From positions 14,269,290-14,333,289 of the forward strand of contig OX031061.1 of assembly GCA_943736015.1 (NCBI GenBank): a stretch of 64,000 bases of DNA, given 5' to 3'. The stretch comes from Tridacna crocea. Lineage: Eukaryota; Mollusca; Bivalvia; Cardiida; Cardiidae. Numbering within the stretch: the first letter of the stretch is position 1; the number at the start of each line of letters is the position of its first letter. Both the position numbers and the translations under genes were made by a program. Below the pieces are notes generated by a model that saw only the letters and a list, made by a program, of their open reading frames with translations, had not been told where the DNA came from and did no database searches. Of this stretch, positions 8,073-62,701 are shown one piece after another.

Positions 8073-8475
8073 TTAACCCTTTCCCAAACGACAAATTTTG
8101 GACTCTTCCAAACTGAAAGAGTTTGCAGACAAGAATTTTTAGATTAAAAAAAAAAAAAAAAAAAATAGCAGAAAGTTCTCAAAAAGGGTAGAAAACTCTG
8201 TGGAAAAAGGAGAAATTGCTCGTTACGAGCAATTTCTCCTTTTCCCACAATGTTTTCAAAAGACTTTTACTTCAGACACCTAAAACCAGGGCTTGTTTGG
8301 GAAAGAATTTTTAGATTTAAAAAAAAAAATGGCAGAAAGTTCTCAAAAAGGGTAGAAAACACTGTGGAAAAAGGAGAAATTGCTCGTTACGAGCAATTTC
8401 TCCTTTTCCCACAGTGTTTTCAAAAGACTTTTACTTCAGACACGTAAAACCTGGGCTTGTTTGGGAAAGGGTTAA
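8073..8475. mobile_element. Family A element with tandem internal duplication
   Basis: TTAA ends at 8073-8076 and 8472-8475 enclose one left end and one right end but two central hairpins. A unit of about 170 bp, from ttttagatttaaaaaaaa to gcttgtttgggaaag, is present twice (about 8134-8304 and 8305-8472). Each unit carries the GCTCGTTACGAGC hairpin. Normal copies have one hairpin and are about 230 bp. Confidence 0.8.
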
Positions 8476-18400: not shown

Positions 18401-21400
18401 TTACGAGGTTTTGGAAGTAAACCGACGTTGTGTTTTTTATACTTTTTGAGATATAGCAACATGTCATAACAGTTAATGTATCAGGTGGTTCATAGGCGGC
18501 TTTGTCACCATCTTTTGGCCTTTTACCAAACAGAGCTATGGTTTTAGGACTCTGAGGACGAAGCCTTTTAAAAATACATACTGGGAAAAAACGAGAGAGT
18601 ACTGGTACCGAGCATTTTGTCCTTTTCCTACATAATTTTTAATCTGGTCAGAGATAATTTCCAACAATTGAAGCATATCAAATGTGTAGCCTTCAATAGC
18701 TTTGAATTTGAATGTGGGCGTGTCGCTCATTAAGGATTACATGTTTTTAAGGCACTTAAAAAGTAAAACAACATATACAGCCCTTTCATATTCAGTGATA
18801 TCTCTATTGTATACTTCTTTGGCTTTATCTTCTAATATTGTATCATATTTTCAGGCTGTTTGAGAGTATAGCGACGTATTGTAACAGTTACACAAACTTG
18901 ATACCAGTGTCTTTTGTCCTTGGGTTTTATGTTTCCATTGTCGTTCACAGATGGTGGCAGCAGTTCACCAACGTCCCATGGCCAGACAGGTAAACTCTGG
19001 CGCACTTTTACCTGATTAATTTATGTTGATCTATTTGTACTTTAATATTATGAAAAATAGTTGTAAATGCAGGGTATACCAAATCAGATTTAAAGTCGTG
19101 TTTGTACTGTTTGCTTAACGCTCAATAAGTTTTGAAAAACAATTTTAACATATCATTGTACGGCTATGGAGGTTGGAGAGCTTTTGTGGACAGTGTATAT
19201 TAAGATCAGACAGCACAAAACGTGCAGTCTGATCTTGGATCTTCAGAATCTGCCATCTGATGCTCAACTATACCCTGTAAGCGTCAGTTATATCGAATAT
19301 ATACGTATAAGCCTCGAGAAAAGTCAGTTGAATCCTTTTAGGAAAAAAGTAAGACAGTATTCAGGGGACATACATGTATAATTTTCTCTTTCCACATATT
19401 TGTGATTATCTCTTTTTAGCTTAACATGTCATGGGGCTTTCCAGTTAGCTTGAATAAACATGAAAGTGATCTCTTTCCTTTTGTTTCCTGCAAGTACATC
19501 ACACCCATATAAAGAAATCAATATGTCGTTTCTCAAATGTAGCCGGATACAGGTATTTGGTGATATATCGTGCGGCCGTATCGATACGTGGTTCGGTATA
19601 GCTCAGTTGGTTAGAGTGCACGAACGGTATTCCTGAGGCCCTGGGTTCGAATCCCGGTCGAGCCGCGATATTTTTTCACCACCTGTTACACAAAGTTAAC
19701 CAAAGAGCTGCAATCTACAGTAATTTCAGACCTTTGATTTGTACCACAAAATCAAAGGACTGAAATTACTGAAATATTGAATGTGACAAAATACCTATAT
19801 CTAATACTTAAATTTATCTTTATCTTACCAGAACATTATTTATCATGGGGAGTTACATACACGGAGACGATGAGCGGTCTAGGATAATACGCAGAACTGT
19901 AGCACGATACATGATGTTCGGGGAAATCCTGATTCTGCGCTCAATAAGCGTCGCAGTGATGAAGAGGTATCCGAGTCTGGATCACATAGTGGATGCAGGT
20001 TTCTTTTCACTAGTTTTATGATACTGTGCGCTCTTATAGTGGGCTCAATACTAGCTAAACCTAAAGCTTGTTGTTACCTCTATTGTACGACACCAGAGCC
20101 CTGGAAAAGAGGGAGTGATAGTATTCTAAATCCATTATTTCTCTTCCAAACCCTATGTTGTGGGTACTTATTAGAATGGTCTCGATGAGACGATTCTAAT
20201 GAGTACCAATAACATAGGTTTTAGCGGACAAAAACTAACATTTTCAATTTTGGAATCAAAATCAGTCTCTCTGATTGGAGCTCTGGATGCTAAAGATTGG
20301 TGTCTAAGTGCCGTTGGCGTCATTTATGATAATGATGAATAGTTATACCAAGTGTAATGGCTTCCTCAAGAGATATCAAATACTCATTTGCTGTTCATTA
20401 AACTTCTATAAAAAGGCAAAACTTTAGACTTTCCCTCTGTAAAAAGTTTTGCATACAACAAAATAAATTTTACTAAAATATTAAAACTTGTCTCTTGAAA
20501 GGTTGGAAACAATGTTGGAAAGGCCAAATGCTGGCCACTAGCATTTTCTTCTATTGCAAACATGTTTTTAAAGCCTTATCGTAATACAAAGGAGTTGTTT
20601 GGAAAAGGTTAAAGAAAGCCTTCACATTTAATCTAAAGATTATCACCTGAAATGAAATTAAATCCCCACTGTGATATGTCGCCATTTTAAACGTGTAACG
20701 TTCATATTGTCACTATTTCATCATGGTACGACAAAAGAAACTTAAAATCTTAAAAGAAACAATGAGAAAGTATTGCGTAGATGTGTTGGCAGTAGTAATA
20801 CAGAAAAATATGTCAAGCTGTACTTACATGTTGGTCTTTGAATCGACCCCCCCCAAAAAAAAAAAAAAAAAAAAGCATCATTTCACAGCCAGAGCTGTTG
20901 TCAGGTGACGGTGTAGACCCAAGGCTGCACGAAGTTCAACATTTAGGGATCCATGAAAGTCGAATCAATTTAGTTAATCAATTGAATTGGTAGAGGAAGG
21001 GTTAAAGGCTTGAAGGATTCAGGATCAGCCTGCAAGCTCTTTGCTCTCAGATCTTAATCTATGCCGTCCATCCAAATACCCGTAATCACCCAATGCTCTG
21101 TTTTGGATTTCTATAAAAATGCTAAGTCATACCACAGGCCGCTGTAACTAAGTCTGTCTATCACCTAATATCGGAATTTTCATTGGAGGACTATGTAACA
21201 AAGCTATAAAGAATAACACATAATAAGGTATCGTCTCTATACCACTTTCGGATATATTTGGGACATGTTTTTTTTTTAAAAGGCGCAAAAAATCTGCAAA
21301 AAGTATCCAGGTCGACATTGGTCGAAACTTTTTGCTTTTGGTAAATTTTCATAATATCAAGAGACCTGCCTACTTCAGGATTCCCTTTTTTATATTTATA

Positions 21401-24400
21401 TTATCTTATATTTATATTTAATTGATTTTCTGTGAATTTTCTGGATTCATAATTATGTGATGACTTGCTATATGATTAAGAAAGTTATGAATCCATAGCT
21501 TTGTCATGCTTCATGGAGACTCACTTAGCCCCTTTTGCCAGAGCTTGACTAATGTTCTTTATCAAAGTGGAGAGGTACTGAAGTATCCACTGATTTCGTT
21601 GCACACTGTTTGTTATTATATACGATGTATCGGCGATACATCAATATGCTATTTTTAGCCACGACAACCTGTGCTCTTACTATAACAGGTATTATCACTA
21701 CTGAAGAAGCCCTGATGTTCGAGAGAGTGGAGTGCAAATACAACAAGTTCTGGGTGCCCTTGGTGTGGGCCAACAGCGTTCTGACCAGCGCAAGACGAGA
21801 AGGGAAAATAGAATCTGACATTGGCTTCAGATTAATAATGGAGGTAGTACTAGAGCCATCTCTGTCACGGTCGTACAAACTCGGTATTGTATGGTCAAGG
21901 GTAAACATGGCGCTTTACCGTCGTATGACATTATTTCAAGAAGTGTAAACCAAAGAAGTTTTCGGCAAACAATATTAAAATCACGATTAGAGTCACTTAC
22001 AAATAATTTTACCATTTACGATCCTGCATTTCGTCGGTTTACTTCAAAAACCTCGTAACTACAGCTTGTTTCAAGCTGTAGTTACGAGGTTTAGGAAGTA
22101 AATCGACCATTTGTAAAAGTAGTGGTTACAAGCATTTTTTCCTCTCTTCCTGTATTGATTTCTTAAATTGTATTCTTTTGAAATAAATCACATCATTTGA
22201 GCCATGCATGGTTTCTCGTCTGCAAGTGTTTCAAATTTAAAAGAGTCTAAAATATGGACGAAAAAGTTAAAGGGGGCTATTTGTATGCAGTTAATAGAAA
22301 AATTCATGTAAAATACATTTACACTTCCTTTTGTTTTTCTTTGCAATCGTATAAACTGTGCGGTTTAATTGAGTAAAAAAATAACTAACTTTATAACATA
22401 TGACGTCATCCTGCTGATTTAATTACGATTACTCGTCATTGACGCGTGTCATTTATCACGTGACATTTCAAATAGCCTTTGCGAAACTCTGGTGATAAAT
22501 GTCAAAAGACCTACATTGCTGTTCAGTGCAGTTTCGTTAAACAATACTTTTTTCTTACTGAAGAGATTCTACTATACTAGTAATTTGCCTACTATTTGTT
22601 AGTTGTTATCCTACTCATTTCAGTGATAAATCACCTTTTCTGCTTTGCTGGCTTTTGACCTTCATTTGTACTTATAGAAGAATAAATAGAAACTTGTGAT
22701 AGGTTAAAAATGTACACATATTTACTTTGAGGACCGCTGCCTATTTGCGGGCAAATTCACGCTGTCTATTTTCTTCTAAATATATTCCTTGTTTAACTCA
22801 TTACCAAATGACAAAATTTTAGGTTTGTCCAAATAGAAAGCATTTGCAGACGACAAAATAAAAGTGACTTAAAATTTGAAATTTGTTTTGTGAAGGACAG
22901 AAAACATGGTGGGAAAAGGAGAAAATGCTGGTTACCAGCATTTTCTCATTTTCCCACCATGATTTTTCTGAAGGTTTCTTTCTCAGGGTCGTCAAAAGTA
23001 GGAATTGTGTGGTAATGGGTTAATGTTGATGAGATTGTGGTACAAAAATAAGTGTAACTACATGCATATTGTTCAGCCAAATAAAACGAAAAATAAAAGA
23101 AATATTAATTATGTGTTAGTAACTCTTTTCATAACAGTCCCAGTTTTTAACGACCCTGATAAAGAAGCCTTCTGAAGTCATTGTGGGAAAAAAGAAATGC
23201 TGTTAACCAGCACATTTTCTCCTTTTCCAACAAGGTTTTCTATCCTTCCAAAACTAAATTTCAATTTTTGATCTACATTTATTTTGTCATCTGCAAATGT
23301 TTTCAGTTTGAAAAATTTTATAATTTTTTCGTCTGGTAGAGTAAAATAAAATATTAACTCTATTCCAGACGAGAAAACATAAGACCTGTGAAAAATGAAA
23401 GCAACTGTAGGCGACATTTTGACTAATGCTTAAAGCAAGGTATTTGTCTATGGCAGGATATTTGTCAATGGCAGGGTATTCGTCTATGGCAGGGTATTCA
23501 TGTATGGCAGGTATTCGTCTATGGCAGGGTATTCGTTAATGGTAGGGTATTCGTCTATGGCAGGATATTTGTCTATGGCAGAGTTTTCATCAATTGCAGG
23601 GTTTTCATCGATGGCATGGTATTCATCTATTGCAGGATATTCACCTATGGCAGCGTATTAATCTATGGCAGGGTTTTTGTTTATGACAAGGTATTCATCG
23701 ATTGTAAGGTATTCGTCTATGGCAGAGTATTCGTCTATGGCAGGGTATTTGTCTTTGGCGGGGTATTCATGTATGGCAGGTGTTCGTCTATGGCAGGGTA
23801 TTCGTTAATGGTAGGGTATTCGTCTATGGCAGGATATTTGTCTATGGCAGAGTTTTCATCCATGGCAGGGTTTTAATCGATGGCATGGTATTCATCTATT
23901 GCAGGATATTCACCTATGGCAGCGTATTAATCTATGGCAGGGTTTTTGTTTATGACAAGGTATTCATCGATTGTAAGGTATTCGTCTATGGCAGGGTATG
24001 TATCTATGGCAGGGTATTCGTCTATGGCAGGGCATTCGTCTATGGCAGGGCATTTGTCTATGGCAGGGTATTAAATTTATGGCAGGGTATTCATCTATGG
24101 CAGGGTATTCGTCTATGGCAAGGTATTCGTCTATGGTAGAGTATTCATCTATGGTAGGATAGAAAAACTTTGTGGGAGACGTAGAAAACCAGCATTTTCT
24201 CCTTTTCGATGATAATTTGAAAGTTTTCTTTTCCAAAGAGTCGTTTAAGGGTTTAGGATTATGAGACAAGATACATGTTTGATCCAGGTGTTTTTAGACA
24301 GATTTATTTTTCATTCAGCCTTTATGACTTGTAAATGCGACGAACATTTCGCATTAATCAACTCTTTACCACAAGAGAAATTTTTAGACTTGTCCAAATT

Positions 24401-34365: not shown

Positions 34366-34445
34366 TGGCCTTCAACACGGGGAAAAGGGGCATTCGGACA
34401 TCTGCGTAGAATGTCGTCTTGGCTTAGCCTGCACAGTCCTCATGA
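34366..34445. repeat. Family J half-element, poly-C tract downstream
   Basis: acggggaaaaggggcattcg and aatgtcgtcttggcttagcc match the first half of the copy at 27525. A run of about 18 C lies at 34471-34490. Confidence 0.55.
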
Positions 34446-34840
34446 AGGAGTGATCTCCCGTAAGACCCTCCTCCCCCCCCCCCCCCCCCCATTCCCGCCC
34501 CTTAATAGGCAGAAAGTCATTACTGACAATAAAAGTGATAAATGGTCCCGGATGCGCCCCCATCTCACAAACAAAATTCATAACAAAGAAACAAATGAAC
34601 AAATACATAACAGAAATACAGGGACCTGGCAGGATTTGAACCTAGAACGCCCGGACGAAAACAGGGATGCAGCCAAGCGTGAATGAGTGGTCTCCCATGA
34701 TACATTTTACTTATTTAGCAGGTTAACCCCTCACCAAACGACAAAATTTTAAACTGGTCAAAGTTCAAAGCACTTGCAGATGACAAAGTAAACGTAACTA
34801 AAAAATTGAAATCTGTCTCAAGAAGGGTAAAAAAACATTG

Positions 34841-37800
34841 TCACCCCTCACAACCTACGTCAGTGTGACGTCACAGGTAGTGATATCGGACCTTTGTTAT
34901 AAAGTCAGTGTGAGTGTTTCACACTGATTAACGTGAGCCGCGGACACCATGTGTTTTCGGTACACCAGATCAGATTTTCAATGGAAGAACCGGAGGTGGT
35001 GTTAGTATTTTCATTTTTATGGACCTGATTTACCTAGATACACACTGATCAACGTGAGCCGCGGACACCATGTGTTCTCGGTACACCAGATCGGATTTTC
35101 CATGGAAGAATCGGAGGTGGTGAAAGTATTTTCATTTTTATGGACCTGATTTACCTAGATAGAAATGTTGATTTACAGCAGTGTCAAGACGAATGATTGA
35201 TCTGTTTACATACATACTAAGGAATAATAATACAATCATCTAAGCGAGCTGTGGCTTTATGAGCAACTGGAGTCTTATTGATTTTAAGTTTATTGCCGAA
35301 TTTTGGACAAAATCCCAAACCATTGTTCATTTTACAAGTTTGTATGGTAAGATAAATGTATTCCCTAAAGGAAAACAAAATTTCACTTGGAAATGTCTAT
35401 CCAAAGCGAAGATATACGCTTTTGAATGGACCTGGGTAGAGGAAAATATGCTAACAAGACACCAATTTTATTTTCAATGTTTGCACATGGACACCAGATC
35501 AGAAAACGCTTGCGGTAACTGGACACCAACCTTTAAATCATTAATATTTCTGCCTGAAACTCGATGCATGGGCTGTATACGAAGACTATTTTTATAAACA
35601 TTATGTCACTACGGTCCATTACCTGATAAAGAGCATGTTCAACTCAATTTCATTACTTCTAGCACTTGCTTTTTTGAAATATTTTCAATATTACGGCAAT
35701 TTACGAAGTAGACCTATGATGCTTGATCACAATTGACTGGTCATTGTCTCCAATGTTGGTGCAAAACATGTTCCTTGTTTACAGCGTTTCAGTTTAATGA
35801 ATGGCGTATTAACCCATTTACCACGCAATCACAAGCTTTAATGTCCCTGGGAAAGATGGCTTAGAAAAACTTTGTCCATAAAGAAAAACCATAGCCTATT
35901 AACTAATACAGTGTGTACATTATTTACCACATTTGGCCTGATTCTTAGTTTAAATAATTTTCAAATCCGCTTGGCCAACTGTTAGAATGGCGTTATACTC
36001 TTCGTACATTTACATGCACGTGAGTTTGTTCGTCTACGTGTTTGTTTCTAAAACTTTAATAGACTAGTCTTCAGAAACCACCGAGTGGAAATCAACAAAA
36101 ATCAACGTGGATGATTCCATAAATTTCTTTCGAGATACTTCGATCCTTTAAAAAACATGGCTTATGTGGAAGAAGCTTGTTTTCCGTGTACGGCGCGTTG
36201 TGAAAATTGTAAAATTTGTCCTCTCTGAAGAACTCAATCACGAGATTGGCATTGGGTAGTTTTCTATCACACTCCTTCAATAAATTTTGATTTTTTGAAA
36301 AACATGGCTTTTGTTGGTGGGGCTTATTTTCTCTTAGTGTCATAAAGCGGAAGTACTTGCAGCTCTTTAAATTCATTGATAATAAATGTATGTACATGTA
36401 TTTAATAACACAGATGATCTCTGATGTTTCATTTTATCTAATATGCTGGGTGATCATGATATATGAGATATTAATCTTTATTGTTACAAACTTACATAGT
36501 TCTTGGAAATGCAGCATTATAGTGCTCAGATATAGTTACAGTTAAACCTATATTAATCAATTACCAAAGGGACGGTCGAAAGAGCTTGCCAAAGGTAGGT
36601 GCTTGCTTGATATAGATGAATGTCTGTGCATTGCTATTTGTCGGGAACTACATGTATGCTTGTTTATTTAGGTTGCTTGCTTAATATAGGTGGCCAACAT
36701 GCCAGGTTTTACTGTATTTCGTATCGCTGAAATTTATTGGTGAGATCATCAGACCCTCTAACAGTGGTGATTTTGAAATTCAGACTGCGAGAGAATTTGC
36801 TAATTCTATATCTTTGAGCGTAATTGTTATGATACACAGTCTGTTTCGTCATAGTTTTGTAAATAAAGCGAAATAAAAAAAACGAAACAGGATATACAGA
36901 CGTGGTTTATTTTTATAAATGACGAATTTCAGAAAAGATTTAATTTAGTAATTTGCCATGGCTGCAATTAACCTCTCTAATAATTTCCTAGCACACTACG
37001 TACCTCTGAGCGATATAAATTTAACCTGATTCTGTTCCCTCTTTTTATCCATGCAGAAATCTTTAGTTGGTTCTAGAGCATCGAGAGGTAGTATCAAACT
37101 CAAAGTGAAAATTGTTCAAGTGAAAAAAATGTCAGTAATCAAGTTGCTGAGAAATTTCAAAAACAAATTCACCTCTTTATCAGTACTCGAATGTTTACAA
37201 ATATGTCTATATGTGTTATGCATTACCTTGAAGATAATTAATTTTCAAAGGCATGTAGCGTGTTCTACTAAAACGTTTTAATACCATCAAGAATGAAAGA
37301 ACTGAACATTTTCGGTGTATTTACAATCTAACGTCAAAGCCGGCAATCCAACGTATACATACGTTGGCCAGTGTGACCAATTCTTGACTCAAAGTAATGA
37401 ACACGAATTACAAATTCTTTGGATTAGTTAATAGGGACAAAGTTTTTCTAAGCCATCTTTCCCAGGGACATTAAAGCTCGTAATTGCCTGGTAATGGGTT
37501 AATACGACATTCATAAAACTGAAACGCTGTAAACAAGGAACATGTCTTGCACCAACATTGGAGACAATGACCGGTCAATTGTGATCAAGCATCGTAGGTC
37601 TACTGCGTAAATTGCCGTAATATTGCAAATATTTCAAAAAAGCAAGTGCTAGAAGTAATGAAATTGGGTTGAACATGCTCTTTATCAGGTAATGGACCGT
37701 AGTGACATAATGTTTATAAAAATAGTCTTCGTATACAGCCCATGCATCGAGTTTCAGGCAGAAATATTGATGATTTAAAGGTTGGTGTCCAGTTACCGCA

Positions 37801-40800
37801 AGCGTTTTCTGATCTGGTGTCCATGTGCAAACATTGAAAATAAAATTGGTGTCTTGTTAGCATATTTTCCTCTACCCAGGTCCATTCAAAAACGTGTATC
37901 TTCGCTTTGGGTAGACATTTCTAAGTGAAATTTTGTGTTCCTTTAGGGAATACATTTATCTTACCATACAAACTTGTAAAATGAACAATGGTTTGGGATT
38001 TTGTCCAAAATTCGGCAATAAACTTCAAAACAATAAGACCCCAGTTGCTCATAAAGCCACAGCTCGCTTAGATGATTGTATTATTATTCCCTAGTATGTA
38101 TGTAAACAGATCAATCATTCGTCTTGACATTGCTGTAAATCAACATTTCAGTCTATGTAAATCAGGTCCATAAAAATGAAAATACTTACACCACCTCCGG
38201 TTCTTCCATGGAATATCCGATCTGGTGTACCGAGAACACATGGTGTCCGCGGCTCACGTTGATCAGTGTGTAGATAGAAATGTTGATTTACAGCAATGTC
38301 AACACGAATGATTGATCTGTTTACATACATACTACGGAATAATAATACCATCATCTAAGCGAGCTGTGGCTTTATGAGCAACTGGGGTCTTATTGTTATG
38401 AAGTTAATTGCCAAATTCTGGACAAAATCCCAAACCATTGTTCATTTTACAAGTTTGTATGATAAGATATAGGAACACAAGATTTCACTTAGAAATGTCC
38501 ATCCAAAGCGAAGATATACGTTTTTGAATGGACCTGGGTAGAGGAAAATGTGCTAACAAGACACCAATTTTATTTTCAATGTATGCACATGGACACCAGA
38601 TCAGAAAAAGCTTGCGGTAACTGGACACCAACCTTTAAATCATCAATATTTCTGCCTGAAACTCGATGCATGGGCTGTATACGAAGACCATTTTTGTAAA
38701 CATTATGTCACTACGGTCCATTACCTGATAAAGAGCATGTTCAACTCAATTTCATTACTTCTAGCACTTGCTTTTTTGAAATATTTGCAATATTACAGCA
38801 ATTTACGAAGTAGACGTACGATGCTTGATCACAGTTGACCGGTCATTGCCTCCAATGTTGGTGCAAGACATGTTCCTTGTTTACAGCGTTTCAGTTTTAT
38901 GAATGTCGTATTAACCCATTACCACGCAATCACGAGCTTTAATGTCCTTGGGAAAGATGGCTTAAGAAAAACATTGTCCCTATTAACTAATCCAAAGAAT
39001 TTGTAATTCGTGTTCATTACTTTGAGTGCAAGAATTGGTCACACTGACCAACGTATGTTGGATTGCGGCTTTGACGTTAGATTGTACATTTATACATCGA
39101 AAATGTTCAGTTCTTTCATTCTTGATGGTATTAAAAACTTTTTTGTAGAACACGCTACATGCCGAATGGGACTATGAAAATTAATTATCTTCAAGGTTAT
39201 GCTTAACACATATTGACATATTTGTAAACATTCGAGTACTGATAAAGAGGTGAGTTTGTTTTTGAAATTTCTCAGCAACTTGATTACTGACATTTTTTTT
39301 ACTTGTACAATTTTCACTTTGAGTTTGATACAACCTCTCGATGCTCTAGAACCAACTAAAGATTTCTGCATGGATAAAAAGAGGGACAGAATCAGGTTAA
39401 ATTTATATCGCTCAAAGGTACGTAGTCTGCTAGGAAATTATTAGAGAGGTTAATTGCAGCCATGGCAAATTACTAAATTAAATCTTTTCTGAAATTCGTC
39501 ATTTATAAAAATAATCCAGTGTATTTCCTGTTTCTTTTTTTTTAATTTCGCTTTATTTACAAAACTATGACGAAACAGACTGTGTATCAGAACAATTACG
39601 CTCGAAGATATAGAAGTAGCAAATTCTCTGGCAGTCTGAATTTTAAAATCACCACTGTTGGAGGGTCTGATGACTTCTCCAATAAATTTCAGCGATACAG
39701 TAAAACCTGGCATGTTGGCCACCTGTATTAAGCAAGCAACCTGAATAAACAAGCATACATGTAGTTCCCGACAAATAGCAATGCACAGACATTTATCTAT
39801 ATCAAGCAAGCACCTGCCTTTGGCAAGCTCTTTCGACCGTCGCTTTGGTAACCGATTACTATAGATTGAACTGTAACTATATCCGAGCACTATAATGCTG
39901 CATTTCCAAGAACTATGTAAGTTTGTGACAATAAAGATTAATATCTCATATATCATGATTACCCAGCATATTGGATAAAATGAAACATTATCAGAGATCA
40001 TCTGTGTTATGAAATACATGTACATACATTTACATGTATTATCAATGAATTTAAAGAGCTGCAAGTACTTCCGTTTTATGACACTAAGAGAAAATAAGCC
40101 CCACAAACAAAAGCCATGTTTTTCAACAGATCAAAATTTATTGAAGGAGTGTGATAGAAAACTGCCCAATGCCAATCTCATGATTGAGTTCTTTAGAGAG
40201 GACAAATTTTACAATTTGCACAACGCACCGTACACAGAAAATAAGCTCCTTCCACATAAGCCATGTTTTTTTAAAGGATCGAAGTATCTCGAAAGAAATT
40301 TATGGAATCATCCACGTTGATTTTTTGTTGATTTCCACTTGGTCTATTAATTAAAAGTTTTAGAAATAAACGCGTAGATGAACAAACGCACGCATGTAAA
40401 TGTACGAAGGGTACAACACCATTCTAACAGTTGGCCAAGCAGATTTGAAAATTATTTAACGTAGTGGACCCGTAATAGGAAACAGCTATTTCTACTATAA
40501 TATTATCCTACAAAATATGCTAAGATTAAAAATGAGTAACAAAATATGCTAAGATTAAAAATGAGTATTATTGTACGACTCTCACCGAGCCACTTTTTCC
40601 TTTTTGTCCTTCCTGGAATTATCATTTATAAATCTAAAACCACTTTATTCTCATCATAAGGAGTTTCTGGAAACTAACAAAAGTATCAACAAATAATTTG
40701 AAGATAGACATCGAAGGAATTTTTGGTCGGTTAAAAATGTGCAAAAGTATCATATCTGTATAAATCTGTCTTTATCAGCTTTAAAAAAAAGTATGCCATG

Positions 40801-42670
40801 CTGCACTAGATGTATTACGGGTCAACTACCTTAAACTAAGAATCAGGCCAAATGTGGTAAATAATGCATGTATACATTGTTTTAGTTGATATGTGTTTTT
40901 CTTTATGGACAATGTTTTTCTAAGCCATCTTTCGTGATTGCGTGGTAATGGGTTAATACGCCAGTCATTAAACTGAAACGCTGTAAACAAGGAACATGTC
41001 TTGCACCAACATTGGAGGCAATGACCGGTCAATTGTGATCAAGCATCTTAGGTCTACTTCGTAAATTGCTGTAATATTGCAAATATTTCAAAAAAGCAAG
41101 TGCTAGAAGTAATGAAATTGAGTTGAACATGCTCTTTATCAGGTAATGGACCGTAGTGACATAATGTTTACAAAAATAGTCTTCGTATACAGCCCATGCA
41201 TCGAGTTTTAGGCAGAAATATTGATGATTTAAAGGTTGGTTCCAGTTACCGCAAGCTTTTTCTGCTCTGGTGTCCATGTGCATACATTGAAAATAAAATT
41301 GGTGTCTTGTTAGCACATTTTCCTCTACCCAGGTTCATTCGAAAACGTATATCTTCGCTTTGGATGGACATTTCTAAGCGAAATTTTGTGTTTCTTTAGG
41401 GAATACATTTCTCTCATCATACAAACTTGTAAAATGAACAATGGTTTGAGATTTTGTCCAAAATTCGGCAATAAACTTCAAAACAATAAGACCCCAGTTG
41501 CTCATTAAGCCACAGCTCGCTTAGATGATGGTATTATTATTCCGTAGTATGTATGTAAACAGATCAATCATTCGTGTTGACATTGCTGTAAATCAACATT
41601 TCTATCTAGGTAAATCAGGTCCATAAAAATGAAAATACTTACACCACCTCCGGTTCTTCCATGGAAAATTCGATCTGGTGTACCGAGAACACATGGTGTC
41701 TGCGGCTCACGTTGATCAGTGTGGTTTGGTAAGACTGTTTTTTTTTTGTAATCCTTCCTTTAAATGATCTGAAAAAAGTCTTTCGACCTGCAAAGCGTAC
41801 AATGCCTAGGGACTTTGTTTTTTGTCAAAGCTTTTGTTAAAGGCGGCCCTTCAGAATTTAGGACGAAAACTTTACAAAAATACAAAAATAACATCCTTAT
41901 ACTCTCAAAGCCTTATGATCGTCATTCATAAAACCCCAGTAGTCGAAAACCACCCGACAACACGAGAAATAAGGGATTTACTACGGCCAAGGTCGACATC
42001 GATGGGAAACACTTCTATTTTTACATGAACAACTCACTCATTTACATAGTGGAAATACACAGACGAAGCTTCAAACATAGCATCCGAAGAAGATATTGTG
42101 AAAAGTAATTACATGTGCGTTATGTAATGGAATTTTAGAGTCATTAGTCACGTGCCAGTCACTTAACATTCCCACAATGCATTTTTTTTATCTTTGGCGC
42201 GAAATCTAAAAATAGCTTAAGAGGCTACGTAGGCTTTTAAGGGAATACCATAAAAAAAATTTGTTTTTGTAATTTTATGATTCTTAATTATTGATGAATT
42301 GTATTGTTTTTTTCATATAAATTTCAGTGATATATATATTTTTTGATTCTGTGTGATGTGAAATTTCTAAGTACCCACCTTTAACTACTTATAATAATGG
42401 AAGAGACTTCGACCAACTATTAAAACCCAATCAGTTTTTGACATTTGGTCAAAGTGTTTGTGCATATAGACATCTGCTTCCTGTCTAAAACATCAGAATA
42501 TTAAATGTATTCATCTAATGTCTTTGATAAATACATGAGAGTCTTTGTAGTCCGTTTGTATCCAGCCAAGCTAGCCTCATTCTATCTTCATATCGTACTT
42601 ACTTTTCAATATAAGTTACGAAAATGCGCAGGTCCGATATCACTTCCTGTGACGTAGGCTGTTACCCTTG
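34841..42670. mobile_element. Large unclassified inverted-repeat element, 7.83 kb
   Basis: ATTG is present directly outside both ends (34837-34840 and 42671-42674). The terminal 60 bp are inverted copies sharing CCTACGTCA and AGTGATATCGGACCT, the left one with about 12 extra bases. The inside is a palindrome: left arm 35041-38147, loop 38148-38278, right arm 38279-41722. Each arm starts and ends with an inverted pair of a block of about 800 bp (35041-35880, 37447-38272, 38276-38975, 40905-41722) around a middle segment of about 1.5 kb. A 120-bp piece of that block is also repeated directly at 34923-35040. The right flank 41723-42670 is unique. No conserved transposase was recognised; open frames differ between arms. 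A 4-bp duplication with inverted ends points to a DNA transposon, superfamily unknown. Confidence 0.75.
40456..40834. mobile_element. Family E TTAA element inside the right arm of the 7.83-kb element
   Basis: TTAA, a 371-bp body, then TTAA. The ends CGTAGTGGACCCGTAATA and tattacgggtcaactacc are inverted copies. The matching position in the left arm (about 35950-35965) has one TTAA and no insert, so the empty site is preserved. A 30-bp internal stretch (aacaaaatatgctaagatta) is doubled near 40510-40570. Confidence 0.9.
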
Positions 42671-42840
42671 ATTGGGGGAAAAGGAGAAAATGCTGGTTAC
42701 GTGCATTTTCTCCTTTTCCCACAATGTTTTTGAAAGGCTTCTATCTCAGCAAGTCATGAACAAGAGATCTGTCACCATTATATTAGTGAAATAGTGTTAA
42801 CTATTAGACTGCTAAGCGGGACTTAACGACCTTTTGCGAA

Positions 42841-42899
42841 CAATCTAGATCAAGATCAGACTGCACAGAATGTTTAGTCTGATCTTGGATATACACTGT
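42841..42899. repeat. Family C hairpin
   Basis: aatctagatcaagatcagac with tagtctgatcttggatatac. Confidence 0.65.
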
Positions 42900-43084
42900 T
42901 CTAGACGGAGATGTTTTTTTCTCTTGATCATATGCGACCCATCACGCAAAAAGGGACCACCTGGGAATTCTGTACATCAAATAGATGAAAACATATCAAC
43001 GATAGTGCAGGTCAGTTTAAGTTGTTAATTAAAAAATGATTGTATAAGGAGGCACAATGACCACTTTTCATATAGAAAATATCA

Positions 43085-61800: not shown

Positions 61801-62701
61801 CTAATACTAAATCCTGTCTATTATGGAATCAACGCTTTACCACCCGACTGAATCTTAGACTCATCGACACTGTTAAAAGGCGTCTGTAGTTGGTAAACTT
61901 AATGTGATTCAAATAACAAGTTTTGTCATTTTACATGCAGACAAAATTGCGCAATCCGCGCAGGCTGACACAGGGCATAACTTTTTGGTTTTTGCTTTTT
62001 GTAAATTTTCTGCTTGTAGACCATTCCACCTCACGATTCAAATGGATTTTGTGGATTCCTAAGTGTGCAATGATTTGGTTGTTATATTCCATCTCGGAGA
62101 TGCATAAAACATTCTTGTCACAGAGCGTACATCACATAGTTTACTGTTACATTTTTGTCCAGTTTACATTTTTGACTGTTACAAATTTGTGTCCAGTTCA
62201 CATAGTTTGCTGTTACATTTTGGTCCAGTATACATATTTGACTGTTACACATTTGTGTCCAGTTCACATAGTTTACTGTTACATTTTGGTCCATTTTACA
62301 TATTTGACTGTTACACATTTGTGTCCAGTTCACATAGTTTACTGTTACATTTTGGTCCAGTTCACATATTTGACTTACATTTTTGTCCAGTTCACACATT
62401 TTGGTCCAGTTCACATATTTGACTATTACATTTTTTGTCCAGTTCACACAGTTTACTGTTACATTTTGGTCCAGTTCACATATTTGACTATTACATTTTT
62501 GTCCAGTTCATACAGTTTAATGTTTCATTTTTGTTCAGTTCACATAGTTTACTGTTGCGTTTGTTTCCAGTTTACATGGATTACTGTTACATTTATGTCT
62601 AGTTCACATAGATTTCTGTTGCTTTTGTCCTCACATTTTCTCTTTGCAGATGGGGCGGAAAATTATGGCAGCTAAAAGCCTCGATGACATTTTTGCATTG
62701 G
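55886..62701 (+). CDS. P4HA: Prolyl 4-hydroxylase alpha-subunit-like, first five exons (gene continues beyond window)
   Basis: Exons 55886-56070, 57386-57540, 60697-60834, 61083-61231 and 62650-62701 join in phase (GT-AG at each). They encode a signal peptide (LVYLVLFCAVAG), then the N-terminal P4HA region: STEHLVMSLKYARHIL; FYLSLKDKWSYGISGHP..CHRAIRQLY; DYIGSIDGIIRLQDTYEL; DIAYRAERMDYFEISVAWIN; and AMGRKIMAAKSLDDIFALG, which aligns with the peptide-binding TPR region. The enzyme works in the ER lumen, forms a complex with protein disulfide isomerase, and hydroxylates proline in collagen-like chains using 2-oxoglutarate, iron and ascorbate. The catalytic C-terminal domain (HxD..H) is not in the window. 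The open frame of exon 5 meets a stop three bases after its donor (g|gtttgt), consistent with an intron there. A shorter protein ending at that stop (62709) is a less likely alternative. Confidence 0.85.
56133..56256. repeat. Family G fragment in P4HA-like intron 1
   Basis: ttattatactgcaaaagaat, then cacggtcggttgacaaggga and acttgtccacggctgttgcg, as in 11671-12175 but with the parts reordered. Confidence 0.6.
56270..56890 (+). mobile_element. Crypton-type tyrosine recombinase relic
   Basis: The clearest piece, near 56709-56830, reads FSAAQILAVTGHKSVSSLAV followed by YQKFTDREKA. The VTGH..SV..L..Y pattern is the end of tyrosine recombinases, with the H and the final Y of the active site. An upstream piece (VSGQMPEDIEN) fits the same kind of protein. 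The element is broken in several places and lies in P4HA-like intron 1. Confidence 0.6.
57200..57335. repeat. GAT/GAC/GCT trinucleotide region
   Basis: Imperfect gatgataatgataatgac and ctgctgctgctactgatgat runs about 50 bases before P4HA-like exon 2. Confidence 0.8.
57590..57860. repeat. Worn family A element in P4HA-like intron 2
   Basis: gcgaccccgagaaataaggg and cgaaaaggagaaaatgcttg with ttcttcctttccaact are recognisable pieces. Confidence 0.45.
58075..58320. mobile_element. Foldback element built of small palindromes, copy 2
   Basis: The ends GCCGGTGTAACGCAGA and tctctgcattacaccggc are inverted copies. The inside is about six units of 30-33 bp, each a palindrome (aatgacccgggtcatt and variants) joined by gacgtag or gacgtcg words. 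The right end overlaps the last codons and stop of the adjacent Penelope-like reading frame. Confidence 0.75.
58311..60168 (-). mobile_element. Penelope-like retroelement with reverse transcriptase and GIY-YIG endonuclease
   Basis: On the minus strand, 60168 to about 58885 reads as reverse transcriptase: RPADKGSGIVVLDKNEY (the entry motif of Penelope-like elements), FCFDVCKLYPSVP, QRKGVAIGSKLG, FIDDGFGIW as catalytic box, and TEFLDTLVKI. A zinc-binding linker (CKLDCHKCAH) follows, then a GIY-YIG nuclease (VVYVGETERQLNERMTEHL). The pieces lie in different frames, so the copy is broken, with about two breaks, and its 5' part is missing. RT plus C-terminal GIY-YIG is diagnostic of Penelope-like elements. 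It lies antisense in P4HA-like intron 2. Confidence 0.9.
60250..60696. other. Remainder of P4HA-like intron 2
   Basis: AT-rich, nothing recognised except the exon 3 acceptor ctctag at 60691-60696 and a short doubling of cagccagttt near 60393-60410. Confidence 0.4.
62118..62600. repeat. Minisatellite in P4HA-like intron 4
   Basis: Degenerate units of about 32 bp, gtccagttcacatagtttac plus tgttacattttg, alternate with a variant with atatttgactg and cacatttgt, giving a double unit near 65 bp. The array stops about 50 bases before exon 5. The open frames across it on both strands are products of the repeat. Confidence 0.85.

What the first reader, a model, noticed from the sequence alone, without database searches (positions are those of the whole stretch)
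34841..42670. A 7.83-kb element that is mostly one giant inverted repeat, with inverted pairs inside each arm
Left arm 35041-38147 is the reverse complement of 38279-41722 apart from scattered differences and one insertion. In each arm, a block of about 800 bp occurs at both ends in opposite orientation, so four copies of it alternate +, -, +, -. The outer 60-bp ends are inverted and ATTG is duplicated outside. No transposase was recognised. Two tail-to-tail copies of a foldback inside a larger carrier is one reading. Differences between arms argue against an assembly fold-back artefact.
Basis: partly seen in the sequence, partly recalled or inferred. Interest (0 to 1): 0.85.

Follow-up and report, generated by a model that had tools for sequence, protein, structure and literature searches.

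The report
Foldback transposon inserted into its twin
The giant inverted repeat is one copy of a common jumping element with long mirror-image ends that landed inside one end of another copy of itself, within a smaller mobile element, so it is an explained nest of mobile DNA and not a new kind of structure.

Summary
The structure is real: 35041-38155 pairs with 38271-41723 as reverse complement at 92-93%, ~840-bp blocks alternate in orientation, and ATTG flanks 34841-42670. It is a nest of mobile elements, not one element. The unit is a ~3.23-kb foldback (FB) with ~840-bp inverted ends and no recognised coding sequence; its terminus occurs 503 + 502 times in the genome. FB-1 (35041-38270, duplication TAGATA) sits 121 bp inside the left end of an older FB-2 (34920-35040 + 38271-41723). 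Their middles point in opposite directions, which makes the palindrome. A tree of 20 copies does not join FB-1 with FB-2, against local inverted duplication. FB mostly duplicates 5 bp (19 of 24 flank pairs), AT-rich. Its end CACACTG is one letter from the RAG heptamer (recalled), but AT-rich targets and a poor fit to the protostome RAG-like end speak against that group. No transposase source was found. New family of a known kind; interest low to moderate.

The parts
34837..34840 (.). ATTG, left target-site duplication of the carrier (right copy 42671-42674)
   Evidence: Sequence. In the 20 fetched loci 34 matches to the left host flank were found; 18 reach the site, and in 16 of those 18 the right host flank abuts: the unoccupied site.
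34841..42670 (.). Carrier: ~474-bp MITE-like element with short imperfect inverted ends, expanded to 7.83 kb by insertions; its own sequence is 34841-34919, 41728-41836 and 42385-42670
   Evidence: Joined flanks as a 482-bp query: all 40 scored copies (1142 first-look candidates) match as one piece covering at least query positions 7-478, at 95-96%. Piece 42385-42670 alone: 42 matches from 40 scored of 1097 candidates.
34920..41723 (-). FB-2, the older foldback copy (34920-35040 + 38277-41723 once FB-1 and one copy of its duplicated site are left out); possible 4-bp duplication GTTT at 34916-34919 and 41724-41727
   Evidence: Homology of its parts to FB; its own two termini, read and checked for duplication; alignment and tree with FB-1 and 18 other copies. 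The 32-base terminus pattern listed FB-1's ends but not FB-2's.
34920..35040 (+). First 121 bp of FB-2's left inverted end, cut off from the rest by FB-1; this makes the apparent 121-bp tandem repeat
   Evidence: TRF 34920-35161, period 121; 94% identical to 35041-35161.
35041..38270 (+). FB-1, the younger complete foldback copy, 3230 bp; duplication TAGATA at 35035-35040 and 38271-38276
   Evidence: Stand-alone copies with the same two ends at other loci, up to 98.7% identical; duplication; the junction with no mismatch occurs only here.
35041..35880 (+). FB-1 left inverted end (~840 bp)
   Evidence: 96.4% inverted match to 37432-38272.
35881..37431 (+). FB-1 middle, ~1.55 kb, no recognised coding sequence
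   Evidence: Six frames with stops as X: two Pfam matches, E 0.14 and 0.15, both far under cut-off; one ORF in it gave E 0.098 at 11.8 bits against a cut-off of 55.
37432..38270 (-). FB-1 right inverted end (~840 bp)
38271..41723 (-). Main body of FB-2, with its middle inverted relative to FB-1
40460..40830 (.).
   Evidence: Sequence; similar pieces (76-85%) outside FB in L011, L018 and L022; absent from FB-1.
41841..42380 (.). 540-bp high-copy repeat inserted in the carrier, TTAA on both sides (41837-41840, 42381-42384)
   Evidence: 9186 first-look candidates, 40 scored. Of 11 loci examined (L030-L040), the TTAA...TTAA form was found at both ends in 10 and at the left end only in 1.

Best explanation
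The locus is a stack of successive transposon insertions. A host repeat received a ~474-bp MITE-like element (ATTG duplicated). That element received a TTAA-type repeat and a 3.2-kb non-autonomous foldback transposon, FB-2. FB-2 then received a TTAA-type insert and, 121 bp inside its left inverted end at CTAGATAG, a second copy of its own family, FB-1. FB ends are mirror images, so only the middle shows orientation. FB-1 went in with its middle opposite to FB-2's, and this makes the pair read as a near-continuous palindrome. Shown: repeat anatomy, family membership, FB-1's duplication, unoccupied sites for the carrier and its host, and the order FB-2 before FB-1. Inferred: cut-and-paste movement by a transposase supplied in trans; that this enzyme belongs to a lineage making 5-bp duplications rests on the duplication lengths alone.
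For: Stand-alone FB copies with the same ends: 12 of 20 fetched loci hold a match over the whole length in one piece. 503 forward and 502 reverse termini with at most 3 mismatches in 32, control 0. FB-1 is flanked by TAGATA on both sides; exact 5-bp duplications occur in 19 of 24 flank pairs examined, 6 bp in 2 (FB-1 among them), 4 bp in 1 (FB-2), none in 2. In a tree of 20 middles FB-1 lies in a 5-copy clade (support 100/99) and FB-2 pairs with L025 (95/93); whole-copy identity FB-1/FB-2 is 95.2%, against 98.5-98.7% to L009, L010 and L011. Carrier copies without the inserts: 40 of 40 scored. Host repeat unoccupied: 16 of the 18 flank matches that reach the site. The junction GATCAGTGTG+TAGATAGAAATG without mismatch occurs only here; the one further place, with 2 mismatches, holds no FB sequence.
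Against: FB-2's own duplication is only 4 bp (GTTT), short of the usual 5, so it may be chance or eroded. FB-1's is 6 rather than 5. No autonomous partner was found and the middle shows no coding trace. No raw reads could be checked.
Confidence: 0.95

Rival explanations
1. Local inverted duplication: one foldback was copied beside itself by fold-back replication or breakage-fusion, giving a true palindrome.
For: The overall layout is a near-palindrome.
Against: FB-1 and FB-2 are not sisters in the tree. TAGATA flanks FB-1 exactly, and the 121-bp FB-2 end piece to its left is what an insertion predicts. Inverted duplication would not give a unit bounded by the family's own ends.
Confidence: 0.02
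2. Assembly fold-back artefact at the centre.
For: Hairpin-like layout; raw reads were not available.
Against: The two arms differ by 7-8%, one carries an insertion that the other lacks, and they have different closest relatives elsewhere in the genome.
Confidence: 0.01
3. Recombination between two separate FB copies, rather than insertion of one into the other, placed them together, as described for chimeric Galileo copies.
For: FB copies are ready substrates. L015 has no matching duplication, and L028 looks like a collapsed FB-in-FB array, with outer duplication TTACA and an internal junction lacking one.
Against: In the window FB-1 has intact ends and a perfect 6-bp duplication whose two copies fit FB-2 sequence, the pattern of a simple insertion.
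Confidence: 0.03
4. On the separate question of what moves FB: a Transib/RAG-like transposase.
For: Mostly 5-bp duplications (19 of 24), as reported for RAG-like, Transib and ProtoRAG elements (passages of PMC7204232). The end CACACTG differs by one letter from the RSS heptamer CACAGTG and fits 6 of 7 positions of CACWATG (both motifs recalled).
Against: Duplications are AT-rich (15 of 95 bases G or C, flanks 37%), whereas Transib, ProtoRAG and RAG favour GC (passages of PMC8289069). By my count the end agrees at 6 of 17 positions with the protostome RAG-like consensus quoted in PMC7204232. A RAG1 family search of the genome found nothing, but it found nothing in the 14 controls either. One mollusc survey identified a single Transib element (passage of PMC10294476).
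Confidence: 0.25

Closest known systems
Tetris (foldback, Drosophila virilis; PMC4079207, passages seen)
   Same: Long inverted ends, variable non-coding middle, non-autonomous, no transposase source found.
   Different: Tetris makes 8-10 bp duplications and has internally tandem-repeated ends; FB makes mostly 5 bp, and its 121-bp tandem pair is an effect of the insertion, not part of the element.
Galileo/Newton/Kepler (P superfamily, foldback-like, Drosophila; PMC2775673, passages seen)
   Same: Long inverted ends (about 600 bp in two copies tabulated there), nested insertions by other elements, chimeric copies.
   Different: 7-bp duplications with consensus GTAGTAC; FB has mostly 5-bp, AT-rich duplications.
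MULEs with multiple long TIRs in plants (PMC3310237, passages seen)
   Same: Extra tandem TIR copies at an end; nested insertion is named there as one possible origin.
   Different: There nested insertion would need loss of the inner duplication and the origin is left open; here TAGATA is intact, so the origin of the doubled end can be read directly. FB is not shown to be a MULE.
RAG-like / Transib transposons (PMC7204232 and PMC8289069, passages seen)
   Same: 5-bp duplications, ends starting with CAC, non-autonomous derivatives known.
   Different: AT-rich rather than GC-biased duplications, different sequence after CAC, no RAG1-like gene linked to FB.

Membership tests
Non-autonomous DNA transposon, foldback type | Long terminal inverted repeats | tested here: met
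   Left and right ends 93.5-98.5% alike in 20 of 20 copies; matched length 824-847 bp in 16, shorter in 4 (793, 744, 727, 471).
Non-autonomous DNA transposon, foldback type | Dispersed copies with fixed ends and target-site duplications | tested here: met
   503 + 502 termini; exact 5-bp duplication in 19 of 24 flank pairs, another length in 3, none in 2.
Non-autonomous DNA transposon, foldback type | No transposase encoded | tested here: met
   Only chance-level Pfam matches in 7 ORFs of the element (best E 0.098, 11.8 bits against cut-off 55) and in six masked frames of the FB-1 middle (best E 0.14). Stop-to-stop frames: 226 aa in FB-2 only, otherwise at most 132 aa; 4 of 20 copies have none of 100 aa.
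Mutator-type foldback | 8-10 bp target-site duplications (as reported for Tetris) | tested here: not met
   Mostly 5 bp, none of 8-9.
P superfamily (Galileo) | 7-bp target-site duplications (8 bp for P recalled) | tested here: not met
   Mostly 5 bp, none of 7 or 8.
Transib / RAG-like | 5-bp target-site duplications | tested here: met
   19 of 24.
Transib / RAG-like | GC-biased duplications | tested here: not met
   15 of 95 bases G or C, against 37% in flanks; bias of the group from passages of PMC8289069.
Transib / RAG-like | Heptamer-like end | tested here: inconclusive
   CACACTG fits the RSS heptamer at 6 of 7 positions (motif recalled); poor fit to the protostome RAG-like consensus.
Transib / RAG-like | Transposase of this group using these ends | tested here: inconclusive
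   PF12940 search empty here and in all 14 controls; no place with the outer 16 bp followed by five bases all differing from FB, a pattern that would catch about a quarter of such ends.

The most novel reading that the evidence does not exclude
FB is the non-autonomous arm of an undescribed transposase lineage that uses RAG-heptamer-like ends and makes 5-bp duplications but, unlike RAG and Transib, prefers AT-rich targets flanked by C and G. It tends to insert in or near its own copies, so its long mirror-image ends repeatedly build kilobase palindromes.
Probability: 0.2. Interest if true: 0.45.

Novelty: new member of a known kind. Interest (0 to 1): 0.25.

Why it matters
It removes a candidate 'giant palindrome element' and shows how such structures arise: a transposon with long mirror-image ends that lands in its own kind gives a kilobase palindrome and a doubled terminus at once. 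That is a clean case for a question left open for plant elements with multiple ends (passages of PMC3310237). The family itself (about 500 copies, mostly 5-bp AT-rich duplications, heptamer-like ends) is a lead towards an unidentified mobilising enzyme.

Tried and rejected
RAG1 family search of the genome: nothing, but the controls were silent too, so it is uninformative. A search for elements sharing the outer 16 bp and then differing at all five next bases found none; by my arithmetic that pattern would catch only about a quarter of such ends. FB ends 5.1 kb apart at C2:18329855 were considered as a possible autonomous copy; the 1.5-kb piece read (L046) holds FB middle sequence and then a Tc1/mariner-like reading frame (recognised by eye, not searched), so it looks like another insertion into FB. 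Other long spacings (4.8, 5.0 and 10 kb) were not read. Pfam on ORFs and masked frames of the middle gave only chance-level matches. Rfam and tRNA scans of the window found only one tRNA, far from the element. Six literature searches (titles and openings of abstracts seen) listed no bivalve foldback family of this description; that is a statement about those searches only.

Clustering. Right-end to left-end pairs with exact 10-base ends were sought at gaps of 0-30 (3 places), 31-59 (0) and 60-90 (1 place, the L021 pair, gap 87). Random placement of about 500 copies predicts about 0.02 for all three (my arithmetic). The flanks of the three closest pairs were not read, and one (C6:55690954) has a palindromic gap, so they may not all be FB pairs. 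Among the 20 loci fetched (best matches, not a random sample), 3 have a second FB piece within 160 bp (L015, L021, L028).

Rows dropped: L012 (one end not matched) and the other copy in L015 (cut by the locus edge) were left out of the duplication count; L028 was counted twice, as inner and outer flank pair. L012, L016 and L024 were left out of the alignment and tree. The C/G flank test used only the 19 pairs with exact 5-bp duplications and was thought of after seeing them.
Full report
OBSERVATION. The inverted repeat is real and far beyond chance. Self-comparison of 34401-43000 gives inverted matches 35950-38155/40459-38271 (92.7%) and 35041-35953/41723-40831 (92.1%), and the ~840-bp block recurs in alternating orientation. 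ATTG lies at 34837-34840 and 42671-42674.

THE UNIT. The window lies in an unnamed 1.05-Gb genome in 31 contigs. Searching it with the left 840-bp block returned 44 matches from 40 scored of 1137 candidates, many as inverted pairs about 3.2 kb apart. Of 20 loci fetched around best matches, 12 hold a foldback element (FB) matching 35041-38270 over its whole length in one piece; in the other 8 the match is interrupted or partial. Three of the 20 hold a second FB piece nearby. The terminus CACACTGATCAACGTGAGCCGCGGACACCATG, with up to 3 mismatches, occurs 503 times forward and 502 times reverse, control 0. In the 100 places that call listed, the commonest end-to-end distance, read by eye, is about 3.2-3.3 kb; others range from 218 bp to 10 kb. 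The 218-bp one (L045) is a deleted copy with its own duplication ATATA.

DUPLICATIONS AND TARGET. Of 24 flank pairs examined (20 fetched loci less L012, with L021 and L028 each giving two, plus L045 and the two window copies), 19 have an exact 5-bp duplication, 2 have 6 bp (FB-1: TAGATA; second copy in L021: CTTTTA), 1 has 4 bp (FB-2: GTTT) and 2 have none (L015, L028 inner). The 19 duplications hold 15 G or C in 95 bases, against 37% in flanks 20-60 bp away. C precedes the site in 13 of 19 and G follows it in 6 of 19, together more than expected at 18% (binomial P 7e-6, a test chosen after seeing the data). The asymmetry between 13 and 6 is not explained. FB-1's target, C-TAGATA-G, fits this preference.

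THE NEST. Left of FB-1 are 121 bp of FB end (34920-35040) stopping in TAGATA; right of FB-1 the sequence resumes with TAGATA and the next bases of the same FB end (38271 on). So FB-1 is inserted 121 bp inside the left end of FB-2. The same junction occurs nowhere else without mismatch; one place with 2 mismatches (L048) holds no FB sequence. FB-2 carries a 371-bp insert at a TTAA (40460-40830). FB-2 and a 540-bp TTAA-flanked repeat (41841-42380; TTAA form at both ends in 10 of 11 loci examined and at the left end only in the other) lie in a carrier. With the inserts left out, the carrier's pieces form a 482-base query including the target duplications; all 40 scored of 1142 candidates match it as one piece at 95-96%. 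The carrier sits in yet another repeat: of 34 matches to its left flank in the 20 loci, 18 reach the site, and in 16 of these (11 loci) the right flank abuts, showing the unoccupied site. The window thus shows four levels: host repeat, carrier, FB-2, FB-1.

WHY A PALINDROME. The ends of FB are inverted copies of each other, so any FB inserted in an FB end gives alternating blocks. If the middle also points the opposite way, about an even chance, the whole reads as one large inverted repeat. The two copies are not local duplicates: in a tree of 20 middles FB-1 is in a clade with L009, L010, L011 and L022 (support 100/99) and FB-2 pairs with L025 (95/93). FB-1 is 98.5-98.7% identical to L009, L010 and L011 and 95.2% to FB-2.

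IS SELF-INSERTION UNUSUAL? With about 500 copies of 3.2 kb in 1.05 Gb, random insertion predicts about one FB-in-FB event in the genome (my arithmetic), so one case needs no special cause. Hints of more: L028 looks like a second, later collapsed FB-in-FB, with outer duplication TTACA on both sides; L021 holds two FB with different duplications 87 bp apart; L015 holds two copies about 155 bp apart. Exact end pairs at gaps of 0-30, 31-59 and 60-90 bp number 3, 0 and 1, where about 0.02 would be expected. This suggests local hopping or self-targeting, but the fetched sample was not random and three of the pairs were not read.

WHAT MOVES IT. FB has no coding trace beyond chance-level matches and no autonomous partner was found (both weak tests). 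The duplication length does not fit the foldbacks compared: Tetris, assigned to Mutator, 8-10 bp (passages of PMC4079207) and Galileo 7 bp (passages of PMC2775673). RAG-like and Transib elements make 5-bp duplications (passages of PMC7204232), and the FB end resembles the RSS heptamer (recalled), but those elements favour GC-rich sites (passages of PMC8289069) and the protostome RAG-like end consensus fits poorly. I do not file FB under that group.

VERDICT. Observation confirmed and interpretation partly right. It is a nested self-insertion of a non-autonomous foldback family, new as far as my searches show, in a small carrier. Novelty: new member of a known kind. Interest 0.25, mainly for the unidentified mobilising enzyme and the clean view of how a doubled end and a giant palindrome arise.

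Noticed in passing
window 8155-8469: A 164-bp unit repeated 1.9 times whose hairpin sequence resembles, by eye, the host repeat around the carrier (34723-34840 / 42671-42749). Pieces of that host repeat match in 15 and 19 of the 20 fetched loci respectively, so it is very abundant.
   Followed up: partly
window 23435-24158: 18-bp tandem array of about 40 copies, with a 269-bp higher-order period.
   Followed up: no
window 19590-19666: One tRNA-Thr (GGT) gene, also found by Rfam at 19598-19658.
   Followed up: no
window 62132-62620: Complex tandem array with periods of about 32, 66 and 132 bp.
   Followed up: no
L028 2208-5978: FB followed directly by the last ~540 bp of another FB, outer duplication TTACA: looks like an FB-in-FB insertion later collapsed by recombination.
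   Followed up: partly
G000 C3:60827082-60828099: Three carrier right-hand pieces (286 bp) spaced 366 bp apart in one orientation: a possible tandem array made from the carrier element.
   Followed up: no
target sites of 19 FB copies: C just before the 5-bp duplication in 13 of 19 but G just after in only 6 of 19 on the genome's plus strand; the asymmetry is unexplained.
   Followed up: no
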